Assembly (NCBI GenBank): GCA_039707465.1
Contig: CM077643.1
Location: forward strand, 201,091,605-201,155,604
DNA from: Rhabdophis nuchalis
Lineage: Eukaryota > Chordata > Lepidosauria > Squamata > Natricidae
Reading direction: 5' to 3'
Length of the DNA stretch: 64,000 nt
The position numbers and the translations under genes are program-made. Shown here in pieces: positions 3,301-43,390 of the stretch. The notes below the pieces were generated by a model. It made no database searches, was not told where the DNA came from, and worked only from the letters and a program-made list of their open reading frames with translations. Within the stretch, counting starts at the first letter, position 1. Every line of letters begins with the position of its first letter.

Positions 3301-6300
3301 TTTCTTAATTTGAGCTTCTCTCTGGAATATACTGCCTCCTTCCTGAGAAAGCTCTGTGCTGCCAAGATTTGCTTCCACTGCTTCTTCAGGTGGATATTCC
3401 CTCATAATATGTATGAGATCAGATCAGCATAAATATTACTATCAAAGCATGGTTAGCAATTTACAAAAAAAATGGAAATGTTCAGATTACTTTGGGGCTT
3501 ATTAGAGCCATGTGCCCTGGTGAGTGATCAGAATCTAATCTTCATTTATTTTTTTAAAAAAGCATGGATTGTGATATGTGTACCTAAAGAATCTAGAATG
3601 TGACCACTTATGTAGAAAATGTTTAAATTAAGGCAATATGGATTTAAACAAAACTAATCTGGGAATTTTAATACACTAATAGACAATATCAGCTGCCATT
3701 TTGTTGCTTTCCCATCCCGCTCCAAAACAGCTAATTGGAGTTTTTTAATCTGTTTAGAATGTTATTACCTGGAATACTGTAGTGTTATCTACAAAACTGG
3801 TTTTAAATAATTTACAGTAAATTTCACTGTAGCAATGACAATACTAATTTACAAGCTTGCTGAAACTTTATGAAATGTGTGTGTTTTTCAATTTATACCT
3901 TTTACTTTAAAAAAGCAACATTGCTTTACTCAATGTCAAAATTTCTATTTCAGCAAATATGTTTGTGTGTGTCCGTATGTATGTATGTATGTATGTATGT
4001 ATGTATGTATGTATGTATGTATGTATGTATGTATTTCATTTCAATGTTTCCTGTAAACAAGTAGCAGATCTATAATTAAACTATAGGAACCATCTCATAT
4101 TATATTACATCTAATGACACTACACATGCTAGCTCAGAATTCAATCATACTCAATTTAGTGCAATTGTTCAATTATATACAGTAGTTGCATTAAACATAG
4201 TTCAAATATTTTTGAATATGCAAAAATTTGCTCCCATGAGAGAAGGTGCAGCAGATGTTTATATATCCAGTGGCAAAGGTAACTACTACACTTGCTCAGA
4301 AAAAAAATCACCATTTAAAATTATTTTCCTAGTGCACTTCCCTCCCATAGTATTTTTATAGCAATTACACAACTACTTTAAATTCTGCCTTAAAACAGGC
4401 AGGCACACATTATTTATTTTAAAAGAAAATGAGGATTCTATTAATTCATGATTGCTTATTTGTAATTTAGTGAGGCAGACCCATCCTGCTGATACATTTT
4501 GTTAGAAAAAGTTAGCTTGTGCATATTCAAAAGCAGCTGGGGGGCATCCGTTATTCATACTATTTCCTCAATCAGTTTATTATGACCCCAAGGCCATATA
4601 CAATAAGATATCTAATAGAAAACAATGTTAGGCTCTAAATAATTAAGAAGATATATACTCAAATAAAGTAGGATATAGGGAACAGCATAGTAGCATGAGA
4701 GTTAAGAGTTTCTATTGTGCTGCATGAACCTAACCAAAGGTGCCCAGGAGCACCCTTAAACATTCCAAAAGGACTGCTGAGGGCCATGCATGCAGCCTGG
4801 GTAAAATGAGGGCCTAATGAAATGTCAGAATTGTAATGAATAATAAATAGGAAGCTGGAGTGAACCCTTTTGGAATATTGGGGTGTGACATCTTACTTAA
4901 ATTTGTTTGGAGAACCATATCCTAAATTCATTTTTGAAGGTACTTTTAATATTATCAAAATCTATTGAGCACAAACCTTCCATAGAGAAGTTTAGTAAAT
5001 AAATTTTATTTATGGCCTTATAAAGCCATGATTACTTTTTAAGGCCACAATTAAGCTTTAAATAACACACACTGCTGTAACAGTAACTGATCAATTAAAA
5101 TATATCAAATTGAATTAAATTGCAAATCTTACTTCTCTTAATCTACTTAAACATAATTGTGTATAAGGTATTAAATAAAATCTTACCTGACCAAGGACCT
5201 GCAGAAAAGAGGTCTTGACAGTTACCTAGTTTAACACATACATGCATGAGTTATTATTTAAAAACAAATCTTTGAGATAAAAAATTTAAAACTTTTACTG
5301 GAAAGATAAATACAGTAAGTGCCCATAGTACCAAAATGCCTTCTAGTTTATTTAGATTGTGCATCCACCCCAGTCTCTCCTAGATGAAGACTCCTTGTCC
5401 ACACTGATCCATATTTTATACAATACAATACAATACAATACAATACAATACAATAGCAGAGTTGGAAGGGACCTTGTAGGTCTTCTAGTCCAACCCCCTG
5501 CGTGGGCAGGAACCCTATACCATTTCAGACAAATGGCTATCTAACATCTTTTTAAAGGCTTCCAGGGTTGGGGCATTCACAATTTCTGGAGGCAAGCTGT
5601 TCCAGAGGTTAATTGTTCTAACTGTCAGGAAATTTCTCCTTAGTTCCAAGTTGCTTCTCTCCTTGATCAGTTTCCACCCATTGCTTCTTGTCCTGCCCCC
5701 AGGTGCCTTGGAGAATAGTTTGGCTCCCTCTTCTTTGTGGCACCCTCTGAGATATCGGAACACTGCTATCATGTCTCCCCTGGTCCTTCTCTTCATCAAA
5801 CTAGACATACCCAGCTCCTGCAGCCGTTCTTCATATGTTTTAGTCTCCAGTTCCCTAATCATCTTGGTTGCTCTTCTCTGCACTCTTTCCAGAGTCTCCA
5901 TGTCTTTTCTACATCGTGGCGACCAAAACTGTATGCAGTATTCCAAGTGTGGCCTTACCAAGGCACTATACAGTGGCATTAACACTTCATGTGATCTAGA
6001 TTCTATCCCTCTGTTTATGCAGCCTAGAACTGTGTTGGCTTTTTTGGCAGCTGCTGCACACTGCTGGCTCATATTCAAATGGTTGTCTACTAGGATTCCT
6101 AGATCCCTCTCACAGTTGCTACTATTGAGCAAAGTACCACCTATACTGTACAACCACCTTGCTTATATTTTGTTTTTCTTGCCTATATGTAGGACCTTAC
6201 TTTTTTCACAATTGAATTTCATTTTATTGCATAGTGCCCAATGTTCAAGTTTGTCTAGATCCTTCTGTATCTTAAGCCTATCTTCTGGAGTGTTGGCTAT

Positions 6301-9300
6301 TCCTGCCAGCTTGGTGTCGTCTGCAAATTTGATGAGTTCCCCATTTATCCCCTCATTTTAAGTGATATAAGATTACTAAAATACTTTACAAAAATAAACA
6401 TTACTTCTGAAGGTTGCATTTCATAGCTTCTCCCTCCTATACAACTACTTTAAGCTTACAGTCTCTTGCCAAGTGCATATTGAAGTCCTTCTGTTAATAC
6501 TAATCAGATACTCTTTGGGTCTTTTTTTACCTTCCATGTCAGATCTTCCAAAGATCGAGTGTCTCCTGTCAAACATCTTCCAGAGAACTTGTTACCTCAT
6601 ATTAACACTGCTGCTTTCCACCGTTAGATTGAAACTATTTCACCCATTAGGTTGAAACTATCTCCCCCCCCCCAAAAAAAATCAACAGCATTAATGCTTT
6701 TCCTAGTCTAGAAGGTCAACTAGAACTAGAAGGTCATTATCCTGGTTTCATGGCTTCGTCAACTGTGCATTTTATCCAGTGATAGATGTACTTCATTCTT
6801 GCTACTTTTATCATTTCATCACACAGAGAGAAGTATAGATATCTTTTAAGAAATACAATATAAATAGTCGTCCTGTCACAAAGATACTGGGATCAGGATT
6901 GCCATCACTAAGCAAGGTGGTTGTAAAGTGATATGTCATGTAATTGTATTGCTTAGCAATGACAATCTCAGCAACCTAGTTGCTATCGTAACCCCAAGAC
7001 ATGCAGATTGTTAAAACAGTATCAGTACATAAAGACTTGGGGGACTTACCAGTGCAACTTGCAACCTTCCCTGCCAGCTTTCTCATTGGCTTTGCTTGGG
7101 AGAAGCATGCAGGGGAGGTCACAAACAGCAATTACATGACTACAGGATGTCAAAAGGGTTTGACTGAAGCAGAATTTCTGCAGTCCAGAATTTTGAGGAC
7201 CACTCATTCAACAAGCAACTTTGAATGGTTACTGAACCATCTACATTTAAAATGAGCCCGTAAGTCACAAATACATTAAAGATGAAAGCAAAGATCATTT
7301 AGCTTTAGTTTTTCAAAAGAGTTTCATTATTTTTGGATACAATCCATAAAGATACTTTGTGACTAAGGTGTTATACAAATTTATAAAATAAATAAACAAA
7401 TAAACAATATAGGCTACCTTATTCTGAAGAAAAACAAAAGGAATTGAATATTTTTATAGTTTTTACTTACTTCATATTGACAATCTGAAGATGAATACAT
7501 TTTCAACAAAGGAACTGTAGAGTCATTTTCAGGCTGTGCAATGTGCAATTTTGCAGAAATCTCAGTCAAAGAATCCCTAAAATGGTTAATTTAATAAATT
7601 ATTAATCTGCAAAGTAAGGCATCACATCTAAACAGAAATCAAACTTAAGATGGACATACGTGCTACAGTCACGAGGGAGCAACAACATGAAACATTAACA
7701 CTTAATTTTTAAAAAGCATACACTAAATATTTTTGTGCAATTCCATCTTTATTTATTATATCTTAATCAAATGTATACCCTACTGCAATCACAAAAAAAT
7801 CCTGGCAGTTCACAAAAAATAAGCAAAAATAATAGCAATAAAATTATGACAAAAACCTCTAGAATGGTCAAGTTTCATATTTTGATAAATGGCCCCTTTG
7901 TTTCATTCAACTGCAAAGAAACTTAAAAAGATGGTACAATCTAATTAAAAAGTCAAATGAACCCTGCTTAATGTTAGTCAGAAATAAAAATAATCAGACT
8001 AGGATTGAAAACAGCAAATGGATGATGGAAAGTATTTGGAAAAATAAGAGTTAAAGGAAATGATACAGCCTCTTCTCAGACTGCTGTCATTTTTGGAATT
8101 ATTCCGTAACATACAAATGAGAAGTATCATGGCCTCATAGTGAAATTTACCATGGTGTGTGTGCGTGTGTATCTGCATGTATACATTTGAATATTTTCAG
8201 AAGAATTCCCATGAAGAAAAAAATTGATGGGAAATATTCAACATCACATACACATACATGTATTTGTGCACCAATGTACACACATGCATACAAACATATT
8301 CAATAGGTTATAACTCTGAAATTCTGATAAAAACTGATAAAACAAGGACCTGCAGTGCCTTTGTTATTTTGTAATACATTTATAACTGCTTTAGATGGAA
8401 CAATAAAAGGTAATACAAACTAAACAAAATGAAAAAAGTGCAAGAAAACAAAAATAAATAAACCCTCCCTCCTAAGAAAGAAACTTCCCACATGCACCGT
8501 GACAAGTATAAACAATTTCATAATCTCTTCACCTTTCCTTGTTAACCTATTTGTTAACTAGGAAAAGGTGACAAATAGTTCTTCATCCCATAACCTAACT
8601 CTTAACACGCAGATCAAATAATTAATGTTTTCTCCAATTCAATTCGGCCATTAAGCTCAAGGTAAAGGTAAAGGTTCCCCTCGCACATATGTACTAGTCA
8701 TTACCGACTCTAGGGGGCAGTGCTCATCTCCGTTTCAAAGCCAAAGACCAGCACTGTCCGAAGACGTCTCCGTGGCCATGTGGCCATGTGGCCGGCATGA
8801 CTAAATGCACTAGGGATTTGAACCGCCGAACTGCCGATCTTTCTGATTGACAAGCTCAGCATCTTAGCCACTGAGTCATCACAACAAGCTCAAAGAGAAC
8901 TCTAAAACAAATAAATGACTTCCCTCAGAAAATCCAAAAAAGTAAAAAAAAAAAAAAGTTAGTAAATATCTATTTACTAAAGATATTTCTTTAGTAAATA
9001 TCTCTTCTACCTATCACTGAAATAGTTATCTAATATCAAAAGGGATATGTTTACGAGCAATATTTAATCTTTAAACAATAGCTAAAAAATTAGTTACATT
9101 TTACTTTCACTCTTAACAAAGGACTACATTTGAGACACAGTATAAAACATACAACATACATATGAACATATAAGAGCTGAAAGGGCTCATTGGTAGAAAA
9201 GTAATGGCCCATTCCCAATCAGAATGTTCCAGTTGCCAAAGTTAATATTTGAAGATTCTGAATGACATAGTACTTTTCTTACTAGAAGTCTGAAAAAATA

Positions 9301-32100: not shown

Positions 32101-34611
32101 ATAGTGCTGATCTAATTTCATCTTTTTATATTAGATGTTCTTGTTAAGTAACAGGACTTTTCTAAGCTATCTTGCTTATCTTCTCTACTACACCAAATTT
32201 AAGAATTCTCCTTCCATCTTTATTGGATTTCTTGGAATTAGTTATTAGCTATCCACTGATATTCTTTTCTACACCAGCATGAGGTTGGTATTTCCTGAGT
32301 TTGAAGATCTTTTAAAGTTTTTTCCCTGTATTCCCATGTGTATTTTCAATTTCAATATCTTCATATAATATTGTTTCTCTTGCTTCTAACAAACATATAG
32401 TTAAGAATTATTAATAATTCTTTGTTAAGTTTCTTCCTGAAACCCTGATTGCTTTTTGGCCATTTCCAACATTTATTTCATAATCCATTTACTTTCTTCT
32501 CTTTCTTAATCGTTGTCATCATCTTTTGACATTCGTCCTTAATTTATTTTATTTCATTCCATAATTCTTCTAGTTCCTCATTAATGAGGCTTAGGACTTC
32601 CAAATAATTCTTGATAGTCTCCTTCACAATGGCGGGCATATGCTTAAGATTATATACTAGAAACTGTCTGGTTTTCTTTTACAACTTTAACTTACCATAT
32701 TTTTCCCCAGTATAAGTTGCACTGGAGTATAAGACGCACCCAGATTTTGAAGAGGCTTTTTTTTAAAAAAAAGTAGGTAGGTAGATAGAGGGAGAGAGAG
32801 GGAGAGAGAAATAGAGAGAAATACAGTAGGTAGATAGGTAGGTAGGTAGAGAGTGTAGATAGGTAGGTAGGTAGAGGGATAGAGAGAGAGAAATATATGT
32901 AGAGAGAGTAGGTAGGTAGGTAGTTAGAGGGATAGAGTGAAAAATAGAGAGAGAGAAATACAGTAGATAGGTACAGTAGATAGAGAGAGAGAGAGTAGGT
33001 AGGTAGGTATATAGGTAGATAGAGGGGGGGATAGAGAGAAATACAGTAGGTAGATAGGGAGAGAGAGAGAGTAGGTAGGTAGGTAGATGTTTCCAGGTGT
33101 ATTTACCCATGTGCTGGAGAAGGAAATCGCTGACAACCTGTAGCACCTTAACACTGCCGGCACAGCACTTGATCAATGTAATTCTCATCAACCACTCTAA
33201 TTAAACAGCTTTCCGAAAGGAAAAAAAAGGTTTTGCACTCTGCAAATCTCCCCCAAACGGCCCGTTTTTCGCAAAAATGGGCCCATTTTTTTAAATAAAA
33301 GGCAGGAATAGCCTTGGGGGGGGGGGCTTGCAGAATGCTCTGGGGGGTGGGAGGGCCCAAAAATGGCCCATTCTTCACGAAAATGGGCCATTTTCTGTCA
33401 AAATAAATTGCATGCATAGCCTTATGGAGGCTTATAGAGTACTCCTGGGGGCTGGGGGGGGGGCAAAATTGAGCAAAATAAGCCTATGCACAGCCATTTT
33501 GGTGAAGGGGCGGGGCTTCAGGAGGCAAAAAAAATGCTGTATTCAGTGTATAAGACGCACCCAGATTTTCAGCCTCTTTTTAGAAGAAAAAAGGTGCCGT
33601 CTTATACTCTGAAAAATACGGTAACGTGTAACTTGCATCTTATCTATTGTACAGTCAACCCTAGTCACATGTTTGCTATTATAACTGAATAATTTTTTCT
33701 ACCAATCAGGAATGAGATCATAAGAATTGGCATAGAACCAATCTGAAACTACATACAAAAATAGCAAATAAAATGGTTTCCTTGCATTGAGATTCCATAT
33801 CTACCTACCCCCCGAACTTAGAACAACTTACAGACCTCCGCTCCTTCCGCCGAAAGCTAAAGACTTACCTCTTCCATCAGGCCGGCCTGGCCTAATTTTA
33901 TCCAACCTGACTGTAGGGTAATTTAAAATGTTAATTGGGATTTTAAAGGGATAGTTTTAAGGTTTTTAAGATTTTAAAATTTTGGCGCAGGATTAACTTA
34001 TTTAATTCGGTTTTAAACATTTGTATTGTCACGTTTATATGGTTTTTAAATTTCCTGTGCACCGCCCCGAGTCCCTTCGGGGAGAGGGGGAGGTTTATAA
34101 ATCAAATTAAATTAAAAATTAAATTAAAATATTATACAAAGTATATACAAAAAGAGTTCTGGCAGTTTTGTTAGCAATTTCCCTCAAATTTGCATTACTG
34201 CATAGTTCTCTTAACTCTTCATATTTAAATATCTTGTGCCTTTTACTTAATTTCACACAAAGTATTTTAAACAACAGAATAGTTTTTTTTAAGATGACAG
34301 AAATCAGATAAACAAATCATAAAGATAACCAATACTTGTCTTTCCTGTTGAATTTGCTGTAAAAGCCCTAGTAGTTATACTGACATTCCCACACCCACCA
34401 TACCTTAAACTAGCTATTTATTATACTTAACAAATTTAGCCCAAAGCAGCTTCCAACTACCAATTTAAGTCATGAGTACAACATCTGCAGAACTCTTCTC
34501 TAAAGTCTTTTAATAGTCTCCATTTCATTGTACTGTTAAAAAATATTATTTTAGGTAATAACACTGTAGATATACTGTGTTACCAGGAGGCTGTACTACA
34601 AAGTATATCAT

Positions 34612-34650
<39 letters not shown>

Positions 34651-37600
34651 TTTGCTAAATTTATTTGCCACTGATCTCACTGTGCAGCTGGCTTACAACA
34701 ATAAAAAGAAAGAAATGCAAAGAATGTAAACAGAAGTAACATCATAGAGCAATAAAATAAACAATGAAAAAGCCCATAACAAGAAATACAACTATATGAT
34801 TACCAAAAGCAGCATATATACCATATTTTTGGAGTATAAGACGCACCCAGGTTTTGAAGAGGCTTTTTTTTTAAAGTAGGTAGGTAGATAGAGGGATAGA
34901 GAGGGAGAGAAAGAGAGAGAAATACAATAGGTAAGTAGGTAGAGAGAGTAGTTTGGTAGGTAGGTAGATAAAGGGAGAAAGAAATACAGTAGGTAGGTAG
35001 GTAGGAGAGATAGAGTGTAGATAGGTAGGTAGGTAGGTAGAGGGATAGAGAGAGTAATAGAGAGAGAGAAATACAGTAGATAGGTAGGGGAAGAAAGAGA
35101 GTAGATAGGTATATGGGTAGATAGGGGGGAGGAGAGAAATACAGTAGATAGGTAGGGAGAGTGTGTAGATAGGTAGGTAGGTAGAGGGATAGAGAGAGGG
35201 GGTAGGGAGAGAGAGAGAGTAGGTAGGTAGGTAGGTAGATGTTTCCAGGTGTATTTACCCATGTGCTGGAGAAGGAAATCACTGTAGCACCTAAGGCTTT
35301 GTTTCTGCAGGCACAGCACTTGACCAACGTAATTCTCATCAACCACTCTAACTAAACAGCTTTCCAAAAGGAAAAAAACCAACCCTTTTTGCATTCTGCA
35401 AACCTTCCCAAATTTTTTCTTCAAATAAAAAGCATTAGTAGCCTTGGGGAGACTTGCAGAGTGCTACTGGGGGGATGGGGGCCCCAAAACGAGAAAGAAG
35501 CAGCCCGTTTTTCGCGAAAACAGGTCGTTTTATGATCAAAGAAATTGCATGCATAGCCTTATGGAGGTTTATAGAGTGCTGCTGGGGGCTGGGAGGGGGG
35601 GCAAAAGACCGCCGGTTCTAGGCTCATTTCTGCCCTTCCCAGCCTCCAGGAGCTCTCTGGAAGTCTCTATAAGGCTATGCACAGCCACTTTGGTGAAGGG
35701 GTGTGGTTTCCGGAGGCAAAACTGCTGTATTTGCACCCAGATTTTCAGCCTCTTTTTAGAGGAAAAAAGGTGTGTCTTACTCCGAAAAATATGGTGTATA
35801 TATATATATGAATATGGCAAGGGCCTAGAATAAACCTCACTGAAACTATTACTATCAACTACTTTAATAATGTAGTTCTGTTTCCTATATAAGTTTTATA
35901 TTTGAAAGTGTGCTCAATATTTACTTTATTAACCAAACTTTTGTTTGACAAATTGAATCAAACAAATTGAGTCCTGGTCAAAATTGTGGCATCAGTCCCA
36001 CGTATTACTCTGGAGATAACATATTTTAGAATGCTTTCTACAAAAAAATCATTAAAAAACCCCCAAAGTATAATTGTTTTATTACAGGAGTTCATGTGAA
36101 GCGTATATCTCAAGGTCCTTTTTCATTAGAGGCATCAGTAAGAAACAGCCTGTGAAACATCAAATACAAAGTAACCTGCACTTTAAAACTAAGTATCAAA
36201 GTTCTCAAGGCATCTCAGAAAGAACATGCTTTTAGAAAAGCAACATTGTGTATTCTGTAGTAGCTCAGCCACCACCAACTTGGGATCCAAAAAGCTTATA
36301 TACCACTTCTTCTCACATTAACCTGCCTATTTATTATGAACACTGGATAAGGGCCATCTCTGAGATCCTTTTGCCAGAAAAATTAATTATAAAATCAGGA
36401 TGCTGTCCAAGGCACATTTCTGGGAGTCAAATCTGTATTCTTCTGGGGAAAGTATTACAACATTAGGTGCGGCTCTGCGTTCTCAAATTAGGATTTATTA
36501 CATAGTTGTTTGCTTTAATATTTTACTCTATGTATTAATGTTCATCATACTTTCATTCCCTACATTAAAATCATTTTTTATAGATGAGAGATATTTTAAA
36601 CAAACAACTTGGGAAGAAAAAAACACCTCCAGCTTTTTGCTTGCTCAATATGCTATATAAGGAATATCACTACAAGGTAGACAAAAATAATTTTTGAATA
36701 ACACATATTGTAATTATAAAGGCAAATTAATTGCTTCACTTCCCATGCCTAAAACAACCACATGAAAAGAAAATGATGCCGAAGAAAAAGAGTTTCAGGA
36801 GCTTCTGCTTTTGATTTCCTATCATACCATCATACCAATTACCTGTGATACATGTCTACACTGGTTTTTGTCTGTAAATGGTGCATGGCATTATCCATAA
36901 TGATAAAACTGTTGACATTATAGCCATTTTTAAAAGGAAGATGGGAAAAGCTGACAGAAAGGAAAAGGTCCAGCACAAATCTTTTCAGAATAAAATTGAC
37001 CTATTCTGCTTTCGAAAAGACTGAATACTACTGCATTTTTAAAATCATAGTTATTATCAGAAAAAGATAGGAGAATGCTTTGAGAACTAGGAAGCCACAA
37101 GACAAAATACATTTAGTAAATATTCAAACTTACAATGGTGCCGGAAAAAGTGATTTATGACCATTTTTCATAGTTACAACCTTCACAGCATCCCCATAAT
37201 CATGTGATCAAAATTCAGATGGTTGGCAACTGGTTCAGATTTATGACAATTGCTGCGTTCCAAGATCAAGTGTCCACCTTTTGCAAACTTCTGACAAACC
37301 AAATCAATGGGAAAGCCAGATTCACTTACCAACTGAGTTACTAAGTTATCAATGGCAGTGATTAACTTAACAACTAAGAAAGGTTGTAAAATGGGGCAAA
37401 ATTCACTTAAATGTCTCACTGAATAACATAAATGTTGGGCTCAATTGTGGCTGTAAGTCAAGGACTATCTGTAGTACTCAATTCAAAGAAAAAGAAAAGT
37501 TGTATCAACATTCACAGAGAAAATACTTTGTGACTACTGCTATGAATCCAAGGAAATGTTACTGTTCAACACTCATGTTCTCTCACTATTAAGCAATTGC

Positions 37601-41102: not shown

Positions 41103-41712
41103 ATATTGGAACACTGCTATCATGTCTCCCCTAATCCTTTTTTTTAATTAAACTAGACATACCCAGTTCCTGCAACCGTTCTTCATGTTTTAGTCTCCAG
41201 TCCCCTAATCATCTTTGTTGCTCTTCTCTGCACTCTTTCTAGAGTCTCCACATCTTTTCTACATCGTGGTGACCAAAACTGAATGCCGTATTCCAAGTGT
41301 GGCCTTACCAAGGCATTATAAAGTGGTATTAACACTTCACGGGATCTAGATTCTATCCCTCTTGTTTATGCAGCCTAGAACTCTTTTGGCTTTTTTGGCA
41401 GCTGCTGCACACTGCTGGCTCATATTTAAATGGTTGTCTACTAAGACTCCAAGATCCCTTTCACAGTTACTGCTATTGAGCAAGATACCACCTGTACTGT
41501 ACCTGTGCATTTCATTTTTGTTGCCTAAATGTACAACCTTACTCTTTTCGCCATTGAATTTCATCTTATTAGATAGTGCCCACTGTTCAACTTTGTCAAG
41601 ATCCTTCTGTATCTTAAGCCTATCTTCTGGAGTGTTGGCTATTCCTGCCAGCTTGGTGTCATCTGCAAATTTGATGAGTTCCCCATTTATTCCCTTGTCT
41701 AAATCATTGATG
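41103..41712 (-). mobile_element. CR1 LINE, 5' part (split by L2)
   Basis: Continues the CR1 copy at 39626-39938. Minus-strand translation near 41564-41346 reads [19 protein letters not shown], as in the 5.4-kb copy. It ends next to the L1 ORF1 element. Confidence 0.9.
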
Positions 41713-41729
41713 AAGATTTAGTGGAGTTT

Positions 41730-43187
41730 CTAGGTCTGGCTGAAACAATTTCTTTTACCACTCTCTCCTTCGGGCTTTGAGCTTGGGCGGTGGAAGATGG
41801 CTTCTCTTTGTCCCTGAATGACTATTTTACTTATGGAAAATTTCCAGCGTCTCTTTGTGATTTGGACTCCCTCTGGTTACTAAAGAAGAATTTTTTGGGG
41901 GATTTGTGATTTCTTTTCTGGAGTGCCTTCGTTATTATACTTATTGATTTGGAAAATTGTTTCTCTCTTGGTTCCTGAACTTTATAACACTGAACTGAAC
42001 TTTTGGCTCCTGACTTGCCTCAACAGCCCCACCCAAAAAACGCCATTTTAGTGGCACTGATTTTAACAGCTAATCATGGCACAAGAATCAGCACTGGCAA
42101 GCTTAGAACTAAGGATGGCCTCTCTTGAATCTGTTATACAAACCTTGGTACAAGAAATCAAGGCCCAGAGGGCAGAAAATATCAACTTTAAAAAGGAATT
42201 ATTGGACACACAGAAACAAGTGCTGGAGAACACACAGAAGAATGAAGAACTGGAAGGGGGGCTGGTGGGGGCTAAGGGAGAGATTAAAAATGTTACTAAT
42301 GAGGTTGTGGAAATAAATGGGCATGTGTCTAGGATTGATATGGAAAGGATGACATATTTTTTGAGATTTCAGAATGTTTCTGAGGAATCTGGTGAATGTC
42401 TCCCTGAACTCATGAGCACAATTATAGCAGACTATTTACATAAACCCAAGGATGAGATCAGGGGGGACATTTTCCTAGTCTACAGAATTAACTCTGCATA
42501 TGCCAGGATAAATGAAGTACCTAGAGAGATACATGTTAAATTTGTTAGAAGGTCAACCAGAGAGGAAATCCTGAAAGTGCAAAGGGGGGGTCCGTTAATT
42601 TACCAGCAAAAGGAGGTTGCCATCTTGAAGCAGATCCCAAGAAAGATTAGAGAAACGAGAAGGAAATTTTCCTTCTTGTCCAAAACATTGTTTGACCACG
42701 GGATCTGGTTCAAGTGGGTGACGCCCGAAGGGATGCTGGTGTTCTGGGAAGGAGGAAGAATGAGGATTAAAACAGTTGCGGAGGCGGAAGCCTTTCTTAA
42801 AAAACATTCCTCTGTCCTGGGGGAAGATCCAGGGGGGGCAGAGGGGGCCACGGCCCCGCCCGCTGGGGGCCTGGAAGGAGAGATAGAAGACACAATAGCC
42901 AAGAGACTTAGATCTAAAAAATAACTTTGCTTTGATTTTTTGAGTAATATAGTATAACATGTGTATCTGGATTTTTGCAAATGACTGACAGCATAGAACT
43001 GAGAACTTAGAAACATGTACTTGTTTTCACTTTGTAGTGTTATGAACAATGTTTTGTTAATGATCTATTTTGAAGTCCTAGAAGGGCCGACGACTTTGAC
43101 GTGAATGCTCTAAAAATTTCTTTGTATCCCTTACCCTACCCTATTGAAAAATTGTAAAACCAATAAAACTTTTTCAATATAAAAAAA
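41730..43187 (+). mobile_element. ORF1-only L1-type retroposon (HAL1-like)
   Basis: 1458 bp bounded by a 17-bp direct repeat AAGATTTAGTGGAGTTT (41713-41729, 43188-43204). Layout: 346-nt 5' UTR, one complete ORF1 (42076-42924), 263-nt 3' UTR with AATAAA (43162-43167) and a short A tail. No ORF2 (endonuclease/RT) is present. A YY1-like GAAGATGGC lies near 41795, as in L1 promoters. It resembles mammalian HAL1 ('half L1') in design. Either a distinct family, or a single L1 with an ORF2 deletion. Confidence 0.88.
42076..42924 (+). CDS. L1-type ORF1 protein, intact (282 aa)
   Basis: L1 ORF1 protein is a trimeric RNA-binding chaperone that coats L1 RNA. Seen here: residues about 5-95 form a leucine-rich coiled coil (LASLELRMASLESVIQTL start); about 97-190 an RRM-like domain (YFLRFQNVSEESGE, REIHVKFVRRSTREEIL); about 195-255 the C-terminal domain (IPRKIRETRRKFSFLSKTL, GIWFKWVTPEGMLVFWEGG); then a glycine/proline-rich tail ending KRLRSKK. 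This order matches L1 ORF1p, which is about 338 aa in human. The start ATGG has A at -3. No stop or frameshift is present. It is transposon-derived, not a host gene, unless expression shows otherwise. Confidence 0.9.
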   Translation: MAQESALASLELRMASLESVIQTLVQEIKAQRAENINFKKELLDTQKQVLENTQKNEELEGGLVGAKGEIKNVTNEVVEINGHVSRIDMERMTYFLRFQNVSEESGECLPELMSTIIADYLHKPKDEIRGDIFLVYRINSAYARINEVPREIHVKFVRRSTREEILKVQRGGPLIYQQKEVAILKQIPRKIRETRRKFSFLSKTLFDHGIWFKWVTPEGMLVFWEGGRMRIKTVAEAEAFLKKHSSVLGEDPGGAEGATAPPAGGLEGEIEDTIAKRLRSKK

Positions 43188-43390
43188 AAGATTTAGTGGA
43201 GTTTAACCCAAATTAACCCTGCTTGCAACTTGTTAACAGTAATATGAACAATGATTAATAGCAAAATCGAAGTTGAGGAAATAATAGGAAAAAAAGGACA
43301 CAGGCTCACTGAAGAGAGCTGAGTCACATCTGGAATAGATTAGTTGCTACATCATACTATGCTTGGCTAATAACCCTCAATTTACCACAA

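What the first reader, a model, noticed from the sequence alone, without database searches (positions are those of the whole stretch)
41730..43187. Complete ORF1-only L1 retroposon (HAL1-like) in a reptile
A perfect 17-bp target duplication encloses one L1-type ORF1 (282 codons, no lesion), 5' and 3' UTRs, AATAAA and an A tail, with no ORF2. Mammalian HAL1 elements have this design; I do not know of a described squamate family. The open ORF1 and clean duplication point to recent mobilisation by another L1's machinery. A YY1-like site in the 5' UTR (about 41795) would fit an L1-type promoter.
Basis: partly seen in the sequence, partly recalled or inferred. Interest (0 to 1): 0.82.

Follow-up and report, generated by a model that had tools for sequence, protein, structure and literature searches.

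The report
Reptile jumping gene lacking its motor
This is one shortened copy of a large, recently spreading family of reptile jumping genes that carry only the first of the two L1 genes and so must borrow the copying enzyme of other L1 elements, a life style that has been described for mammals.

Summary
In the window's own 1.92-Gb genome the exact 30-bp ORF1-stop/3'UTR junction occurs 2,445 times. All 39 other copies that I fetched run from ORF1 straight into the same 3' UTR, without ORF2. The full-length element is 1.92-1.97 kb; 33 of the 39 reach its sharp 5' end, while the window copy lacks the first 509 bp. ORF1, an L1 ORF1p of 282 codons, is intact in 33 of 40 copies, window included. Changes shared by two or more copies are 23 nonsynonymous: 27 synonymous, private ones 75: 35 (p = 0.009): ORF1 was selected while the family spread. 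A tails, target duplications (median 16 bp) and A-rich nick sites are of L1 type. L1s with open ORF2 frames share the genome; the two I read have ORF1s 33-34% identical to the element's and share neither UTR. Best reading: an independent, HAL1-like, non-autonomous L1 derivative of a squamate, driven in trans by L1 ORF2p.

The parts
41713..41729 (+). left target-site duplication AAGATTTAGTGGAGTTT; its last six bases (GAGTTT, 41724-41729) equal the family's own sequence at this point (5'-truncation microhomology)
   Evidence: 17/17 identical to 43188-43204; one search shows ...CAGAGTTT before CTAGGTCTGG in seven other copies
41730..43187 (+). 5'-truncated copy of the ORF1-only retroposon family; the first 509 bp of the full-length (1.92-1.97 kb) element are missing
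41730..42075 (+). 3' part of the 5' UTR (346 bp of about 855 bp)
   Evidence: in-frame stop TAA just before the ATG
41794..41801 (+). YY1-like AAGATGGC; at position 574 of the full-length copy L004, in 18 of 39 other copies; function doubtful
42076..42924 (+). ORF1, 282 codons, L1 ORF1p-like RNA-binding protein
   Evidence: profile match to human L1 ORF1p E 3e-10; intact in 33 of 40 copies
42079..42351 (+). coiled coil (residues 2-92), one long predicted helix
   Evidence: AlphaFold model; aligned with the human ORF1p trimer from residue 48 on
42355..42633 (+). RRM (residues 94-186)
42472..42474 (+). codon 133, TTC (Phe) in place of Asp; private to this copy
   Evidence: 39 of 40 copies have Asp
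42634..42828 (+). C-terminal domain (residues 187-251)
42925..43180 (+). 3' UTR following the ORF1 stop directly; no ORF2
   Evidence: junction 30-mer found 2,445 times
43162..43167 (+). polyadenylation signal AATAAA
43181..43187 (+). A tail (two more A are counted in the duplication)
43188..43204 (+). right target-site duplication

Best explanation
A high-copy, recently active, non-autonomous non-LTR retrotransposon family that encodes L1 ORF1p only. Shown: thousands of junction copies (whole copies read: 40) with one structure (5' UTR of about 855 bp, 282-codon ORF1, 3' UTR of about 255 bp, AATAAA, A tail), target duplications, A-rich nick sites, a signature of selection on ORF1 during spread, and L1s with long open ORF2 frames in the same genome. 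Inferred: RNA polymerase II starts at the GACTTCCGG 5' end; ORF1p trimers coat their own RNA in cis; ORF2p of a co-resident L1 is recruited through the poly(A) tail and makes the new copy by target-primed reverse transcription. The window copy is a 5'-truncated product of that process inserted beside a CR1 fragment, and is probably not itself a source.
For: Copy number: 2,445 exact junction matches, reversed-pattern control 0; 40 places (window included) at 95-100% over nearly the whole query, of 41 reported; 138 ORF1 places, the number that was scored, all 95-100% identical over at least 281 of 282 residues and 131 of 138 without an in-frame stop. Structure: 33 of 39 other copies full length, no ORF2 in 39 of 39. 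Insertion by L1 machinery: duplications of 8 bp or more in 35 of 39; nick-site table of 31 insertions, first base A in 27, base -2 T or A in all 31. ORF1 identity. Selection; region heterogeneity against P0001, 18/164 in the domains and 11/33 in the tail, p = 0.002, 1 of 400 neutral simulations as extreme. Helper: L1 endonuclease frames open for up to 1,301 codons; two L1s read with ORF1 + ORF2 of 392 + 1,250 and 358 + 1,297 codons.
Against: No L1 with a closely related ORF1 plus ORF2 was found, so the parent and the helper are not identified. The 39 copies are the best-scoring ones and lean towards young, intact copies. Amino-acid changes between the window ORF1 and P0001 or P0002 are not more conservative than neutral simulation (161 and 72 of 400 as high), and the coiled coil does not differ in rate from the RRM against P0002 (p = 0.13). 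Private changes too fall below the neutral ratio (0.70), so the private/shared contrast is not a clean neutral/selected one. Nothing here shows expression or movement. The 30-bp pattern reaches only 6 bp past the stop; the whole 3' UTR was read in the 39 fetched copies and the window only.
Confidence: 0.92

Rival explanations
1. One L1 copy that lost ORF2 by deletion, splicing or early polyadenylation.
For: Before the genome search answered, nothing in the window excluded it: no second copy in the window.
Against: 2,445 junction copies and 39 of 39 fetched relatives with the same structure; no ORF2 start after the stop.
Confidence: 0.01
2. The 1.96-kb copies are derivatives of an L1 with the same ORF1, UTRs and an ORF2 that still exists in this genome but was not scored.
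For: Mammalian HAL1s are L1 derivatives (PMC5753468, passages).
Against: None of the 138 ORF1 places has a listed endonuclease hit within 3 kb downstream on its strand (150 of 153 matches listed). Of 12 L1 loci held with flanks (L080-L091), 11 show an ORF1 at 34-47% identity over the aligned pieces and L087 none; L088 also holds a 90% piece, which is the end of a diverged copy of the element itself. The two whole L1s read show 33-34% and share no UTR.
Confidence: 0.12
3. Retrocopies of the mRNA of a domesticated ORF1 gene of the host (an L1TD1-like case), that is, a burst of processed pseudogenes.
For: mRNA-like anatomy: one ORF, UTRs, AATAAA, A tail.
Against: Several mosaic subfamilies with segment-wise divergence and one sharp 5' end carried in 33 of 39 copies point to several source elements with their own promoter, not one gene; shared changes show a signature of selection during spread. 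No search for a source gene was made.
Confidence: 0.04
4. ORF1 is a passenger: the element is moved like a SINE and its protein does nothing.
For: Movement by L1 ORF2p does not need ORF1 for every RNA (background knowledge, recalled). The conservative-exchange test was not different from neutral.
Against: Private changes 75 nonsynonymous: 35 synonymous plus 4 stops, shared changes 23: 27 and no stop; conserved domains against variable tail.
Confidence: 0.06

Closest known systems
HAL1 (half-L1) retrotransposons of mammals
   Same: L1-derived, encode ORF1p only, lack ORF2, likely served by L1 in trans (PMC5753468 and PMC4161310, passages)
   Different: Outside mammals; the ORF1 is far (33-34% identity) from the ORF1s of the two L1s read in its own genome. 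ORF1 is short before the RFQN motif: 96 residues here and in P0002, 76 in P0003 and 103 in P0025, against 144-182 in P0004, P0007, P0017 and P0021, though gene-model starts vary (107-118 in P0005, P0006 and P0010). No HAL1 sequence was held for comparison.
Squamate L1 (autonomous), for example L092 and L093 in this genome and the ORF1+endonuclease gene model P0034 of Pantherophis guttatus
   Same: Homologous ORF1; A tail in L092 and L093; same genome for these two
   Different: They have ORF2; different UTRs; ORF1 in another branch of the tree
SpIRE spliced L1 insertions of humans
   Same: L1 copies missing an internal piece after RNA processing
   Different: SpIREs lose parts of the 5' UTR/ORF1 (PMC5860796, abstract and passages); here ORF2 is absent from a whole family
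L1TD1
   Same: L1 ORF1-derived protein without ORF2
   Different: A host gene (PMC4161310, start of abstract in the listing and passages); here thousands of mobile copies

Membership tests
HAL1-type (ORF1-only L1 derivative) | encodes an L1 ORF1p | tested here: met
HAL1-type (ORF1-only L1 derivative) | no ORF2, as a property of the family and not of one copy | tested here: met
   39 of 39 other copies fetched; 2,445 junctions
HAL1-type (ORF1-only L1 derivative) | multi-copy with defined 5' and 3' ends | tested here: met
   33 of 39 start within 4 bp of one 5' end; 39 of 39 end at the same 3' end
HAL1-type (ORF1-only L1 derivative) | moved by L1 machinery (A tail, target duplication, L1-like nick) | tested here: met
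   the helper protein itself was not tested
HAL1-type (ORF1-only L1 derivative) | derived from an identifiable L1 | tested here: inconclusive
   ORF1 homologous, but no L1 with a near ORF1 or shared UTR among the 14 L1 loci held
HAL1 of mammals (as a clade) | sequence descent from mammalian HAL1 | not tested
   no HAL1 sequence held; named relatives found are snake proteins
L1 ORF1p | coiled coil, RRM and CTD in this order | tested here: met
autonomous L1 | ORF2 with endonuclease and reverse transcriptase | tested here: not met
domesticated ORF1 gene (L1TD1-like) | a host gene locus, not a mobile repeat | tested here: not met
   2,445 junction copies, target duplications

The most novel reading that the evidence does not exclude
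An old, self-standing ORF1-only lineage of squamates that has lived for a long time as a parasite of changing L1 helpers, keeping its own ORF1 under selection and renewing its UTRs by recombination, rather than a short-lived deletion offshoot of one L1. Its ORF1 sits in a branch with P0003 (Ahaetulla) and P0025, apart from the three ORF1s that I have seen joined to ORF2, and its subfamilies are mosaics. Whether P0003, P0025, P0001 and P0002 lack ORF2 too is not known.
Probability: 0.35. Interest if true: 0.78.

Novelty: new member of a known kind. Interest (0 to 1): 0.62.

Why it matters
Half-L1 elements are described for mammals in the passages I could see. A squamate family with 2,445 exact junction copies, mostly intact ORF1 among the best-scoring copies, and L1s with open ORF2 frames in the same genome would show that the life style arose outside mammals as well. 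It lets one ask directly why an element that steals ORF2p keeps its own ORF1p: the signature of selection on shared more than on private changes fits a protein that acts on its own RNA in cis. It also gives a natural pair (ORF1-only element, L1 helper) for trans-complementation tests.

Tried and rejected
Premature polyadenylation inside ORF2: rejected, no ORF2 start motif and only chance-level endonuclease similarity after the ORF1 stop. Empty-site proof inside the window: the left flank is a CR1 copy, 89% identical to 5752-6353, but the similarity stops at 41695, before the duplication, so no held sequence spans the insertion point. Collections of viral and prokaryote contigs: no relatives. 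Rfam, tRNA and bacterial promoter scans: nothing of use. Conservative-change test: not different from neutral. RhxxhE trimer motif (recalled) at residue 13: also in P0002, but found in 8.7% of shuffles and not in P0025, so not used. Single-sequence Pfam gave no L1 match; the profile was needed. Bao and Jurka 2010 and Boissinot and Sookdeo 2016 are not held; they were seen only as cited in other papers.

Absence from print: the ten answered searches, (open-licence PubMed Central; each lists only its best 10 to 20 rows, none), showed no squamate HAL1 or ORF1-only L1 family in the rows listed. Beyond listings I saw passages of PMC5753468, PMC4161310, PMC8535693, PMC6050309, PMC7140322 and PMC5860796; a term search inside PMC8303610 found nothing; one of PMC13295347 failed and was not repeated. 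Repbase and most subscription papers were not seen, so a prior description is possible.

Not finished: a count of ORF1 ends without regard to what follows, and a search of this genome with P0003; the server did not complete them.

Full report
What was checked. The window copy at 41730-43187 has a perfect 17-bp duplication (chance about 2e-10 at fixed points), one open 282-codon ORF, AATAAA and an A tail, and nothing like ORF2 after the stop. No second copy lies in the window.

The family. With the element as query, 41 places matched; 40 of them are near full length at 95-100%, the window included, and one is a 77% partial match. I fetched the 39 others with flanks (L002-L008 came). They show that the true element is longer: 33 of 39 start within 4 bp of one point about 509 bp upstream of the window copy's start, with lengths of 1,918-1,967 bp without the tail. 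The window copy is therefore 5'-truncated, and six bases at its 5' joint could come from either the target or the element. In 39 of 39 the ORF1 stop is followed by the same 3' UTR, 248-258 bp as aligned. The exact 30-bp junction of ORF1 end and 3' UTR occurs 1,201 + 1,244 = 2,445 times, with no match to the reversed pattern. A search with the ORF1 protein scored 138 places of 38,385 candidates; all are 95-100% identical over at least 281 of 282 residues, 131 of 138 without an in-frame stop. These are the best-scoring places, so the intact fraction of the whole family will be lower.

How it inserts. Exact duplications of 8 bp or more were found by script in 35 of 39 copies; L065 and L069 lie in TAA repeats and cannot be judged; L052, L060 and L067 gave none and L076 only 6 bp. 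By eye in the same output, L067 has a 13-bp repeat (CTTTGTAAAAACC) with a short filler, and L052 is preceded by the element's own 5' start in reverse, as in L1 5' inversions. For a nick-site table I took 30 copies with duplications of 9 bp or more (L059, L065, L069 and L074 dropped) plus the window: median 16 bp, first base A in 27 of 31, second A in 23, base -2 T in 17 and A in 14, base -1 T in 16 and C in 11. Together with the A tail this is the pattern of L1 endonuclease and target-primed reverse transcription (background knowledge).

Selection. In 40 copies, changes seen in one copy only are 75 nonsynonymous, 35 synonymous and 4 stops; changes seen in two or more are 23, 27 and 0. Corrected for sites (ratio 3.05) that is 0.70 against 0.28; Fisher p = 0.009. 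Private changes are mostly decay after insertion, shared ones were mostly passed on by source elements, so ORF1 was held by selection while the family spread; that private changes also lie under 1 means that the split is not clean. Against P0001, differences crowd in the tail (11 of 33 sites) rather than in the RRM and CTD (18 of 164), p = 0.002 and 1 of 400 neutral simulations. A test for conservative exchanges did not differ from neutral, and the coiled coil did not differ from the RRM against P0002 (p = 0.13). Seven of 40 copies have a broken ORF1: three with stops and four that share one extra G in a G run.

Age and subfamilies. Pairwise divergence has a median of 1.9% in the group of the window copy and 3.2% in the other, so the best copies are young; no calendar date is given, as the rate is not known here. 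Comparing 15 copies of the first group with 6 and 10 of two sublineages of the second (31 of 40 rows; the window, L052, L060, L065, L067, L069, L072, L074 and L078 left out), the groups differ by 6-7% in the first 100 alignment columns, 10-17% in columns 100-600, at most 4% in columns 600-1700 except 6% in one sublineage at 1400-1500, 7-8% in that sublineage at 1700-1900 (1-3% in the other), and 5-13% at the 3' end: a mosaic, as from recombination or template switching between source elements. In the full-length copy L004 the first 200 bp are 69% G+C with CpG observed/expected 0.85, and 28 of 33 full-length copies carry CTTCCGG at the start, which I read as an ETS-like promoter element (motif recalled, function not tested).

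The helper. A snake L1 endonuclease query gave 153 matches of 5,604 candidates, 150 listed, with open frames up to 1,301 codons. I read two whole L1s: L092 (ORF1 392, ORF2 1,250 codons) and L093 (358 and 1,297). Their ORF1s are 33-34% identical to the element's and share no UTR with it. Of the 12 further loci L080-L091, 11 show an ORF1 at 34-47% over the aligned pieces and L087 none; the only UTR match is a diverged copy of this same element beside an L1 in L088. None of the 138 ORF1 places has a listed endonuclease hit within 3 kb downstream on its strand; two have one within 8 kb on the other strand. The endonuclease list is incomplete, so an autonomous sibling is not excluded. In a quick tree, the family groups with P0003 and P0025 (SH-aLRT 100), apart from the three ORF1s seen with ORF2 (L092, L093, P0034) (an earlier bootstrap tree without the own-genome rows gave 97/99 for the same group). 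Whether P0003 and P0025 themselves are joined to ORF2 is not known.

Comparison with the known. HAL1 is a non-autonomous L1 derivative that encodes only ORF1p and arose several times in mammals (PMC5753468, passage), likely served by L1 (PMC4161310, passage); it was active in the rat (PMC8535693, passage). This family has the same design and works, as far as sequence can show, in the same way. It is not shown to descend from mammalian HAL1, and its named relatives are snake proteins. Literature searches (listed under Tried and rejected) showed no squamate HAL1 in the rows listed, but Repbase and many journals were out of reach.

Verdict. An ordinary-looking insertion that turns out to be one truncated copy of a large, young, ORF1-only L1-derived family: a new member of a known kind in a new host group, with an open and testable question about its age and helper.

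Noticed in passing
G000 contig C8 (58.5 Mb): C8 is about 3% of the assembly but holds 40 of 150 listed L1 endonuclease hits (4.6 expected by length) and 22 of 138 ORF1 hits (4.2 expected); it may be a sex chromosome or another non-recombining region.
   Followed up: partly
L002-L079, alignment columns 100-600 and 1900-2000: Subfamilies of the element are mosaics: 10-17% apart over columns 100-600, mostly 0-4% apart through ORF1, and 5-13% apart again at the 3' end.
   Followed up: partly
P0018 (Pantherophis guttatus) and P0022 (Naja naja): ADRM1 gene models of two snakes run into an L1 ORF1 after the same ADRM1 stretch; the two ORF1 halves differ clearly, so they look like separate L1s or gene-model artefacts at one place. 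P0020 (Protobothrops) shows the like in a USP14 model.
   Followed up: partly
window 41103-41695 and 5752-6353: Two CR1 copies (clade name recalled), 89% identical; the left duplication of the element begins 18 bp beyond the end of the first.
   Followed up: yes
window 32723-33200 and 34830-35343: A duplicated stretch with many exact 15-mers in register about 2.1 kb apart.
   Followed up: no
L065 and L069 (C1:6.52 Mb and C1:7.77 Mb): Two copies 0.05% apart, both in TAA repeats: probably one insertion and a later segmental duplication.
   Followed up: no
L031 and L079 (C2:225383491-225386180): A full-length copy lies next to an inverted, 77% identical, probably older copy of the family.
   Followed up: no
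L052: The copy is preceded by the element's own 5' start in reverse orientation, as in L1 5' inversions (by eye).
   Followed up: no
L088:1-363: A diverged copy of the element (about 80% in the 3' UTR) ends a few hundred bases before an L1 ORF1.
   Followed up: partly
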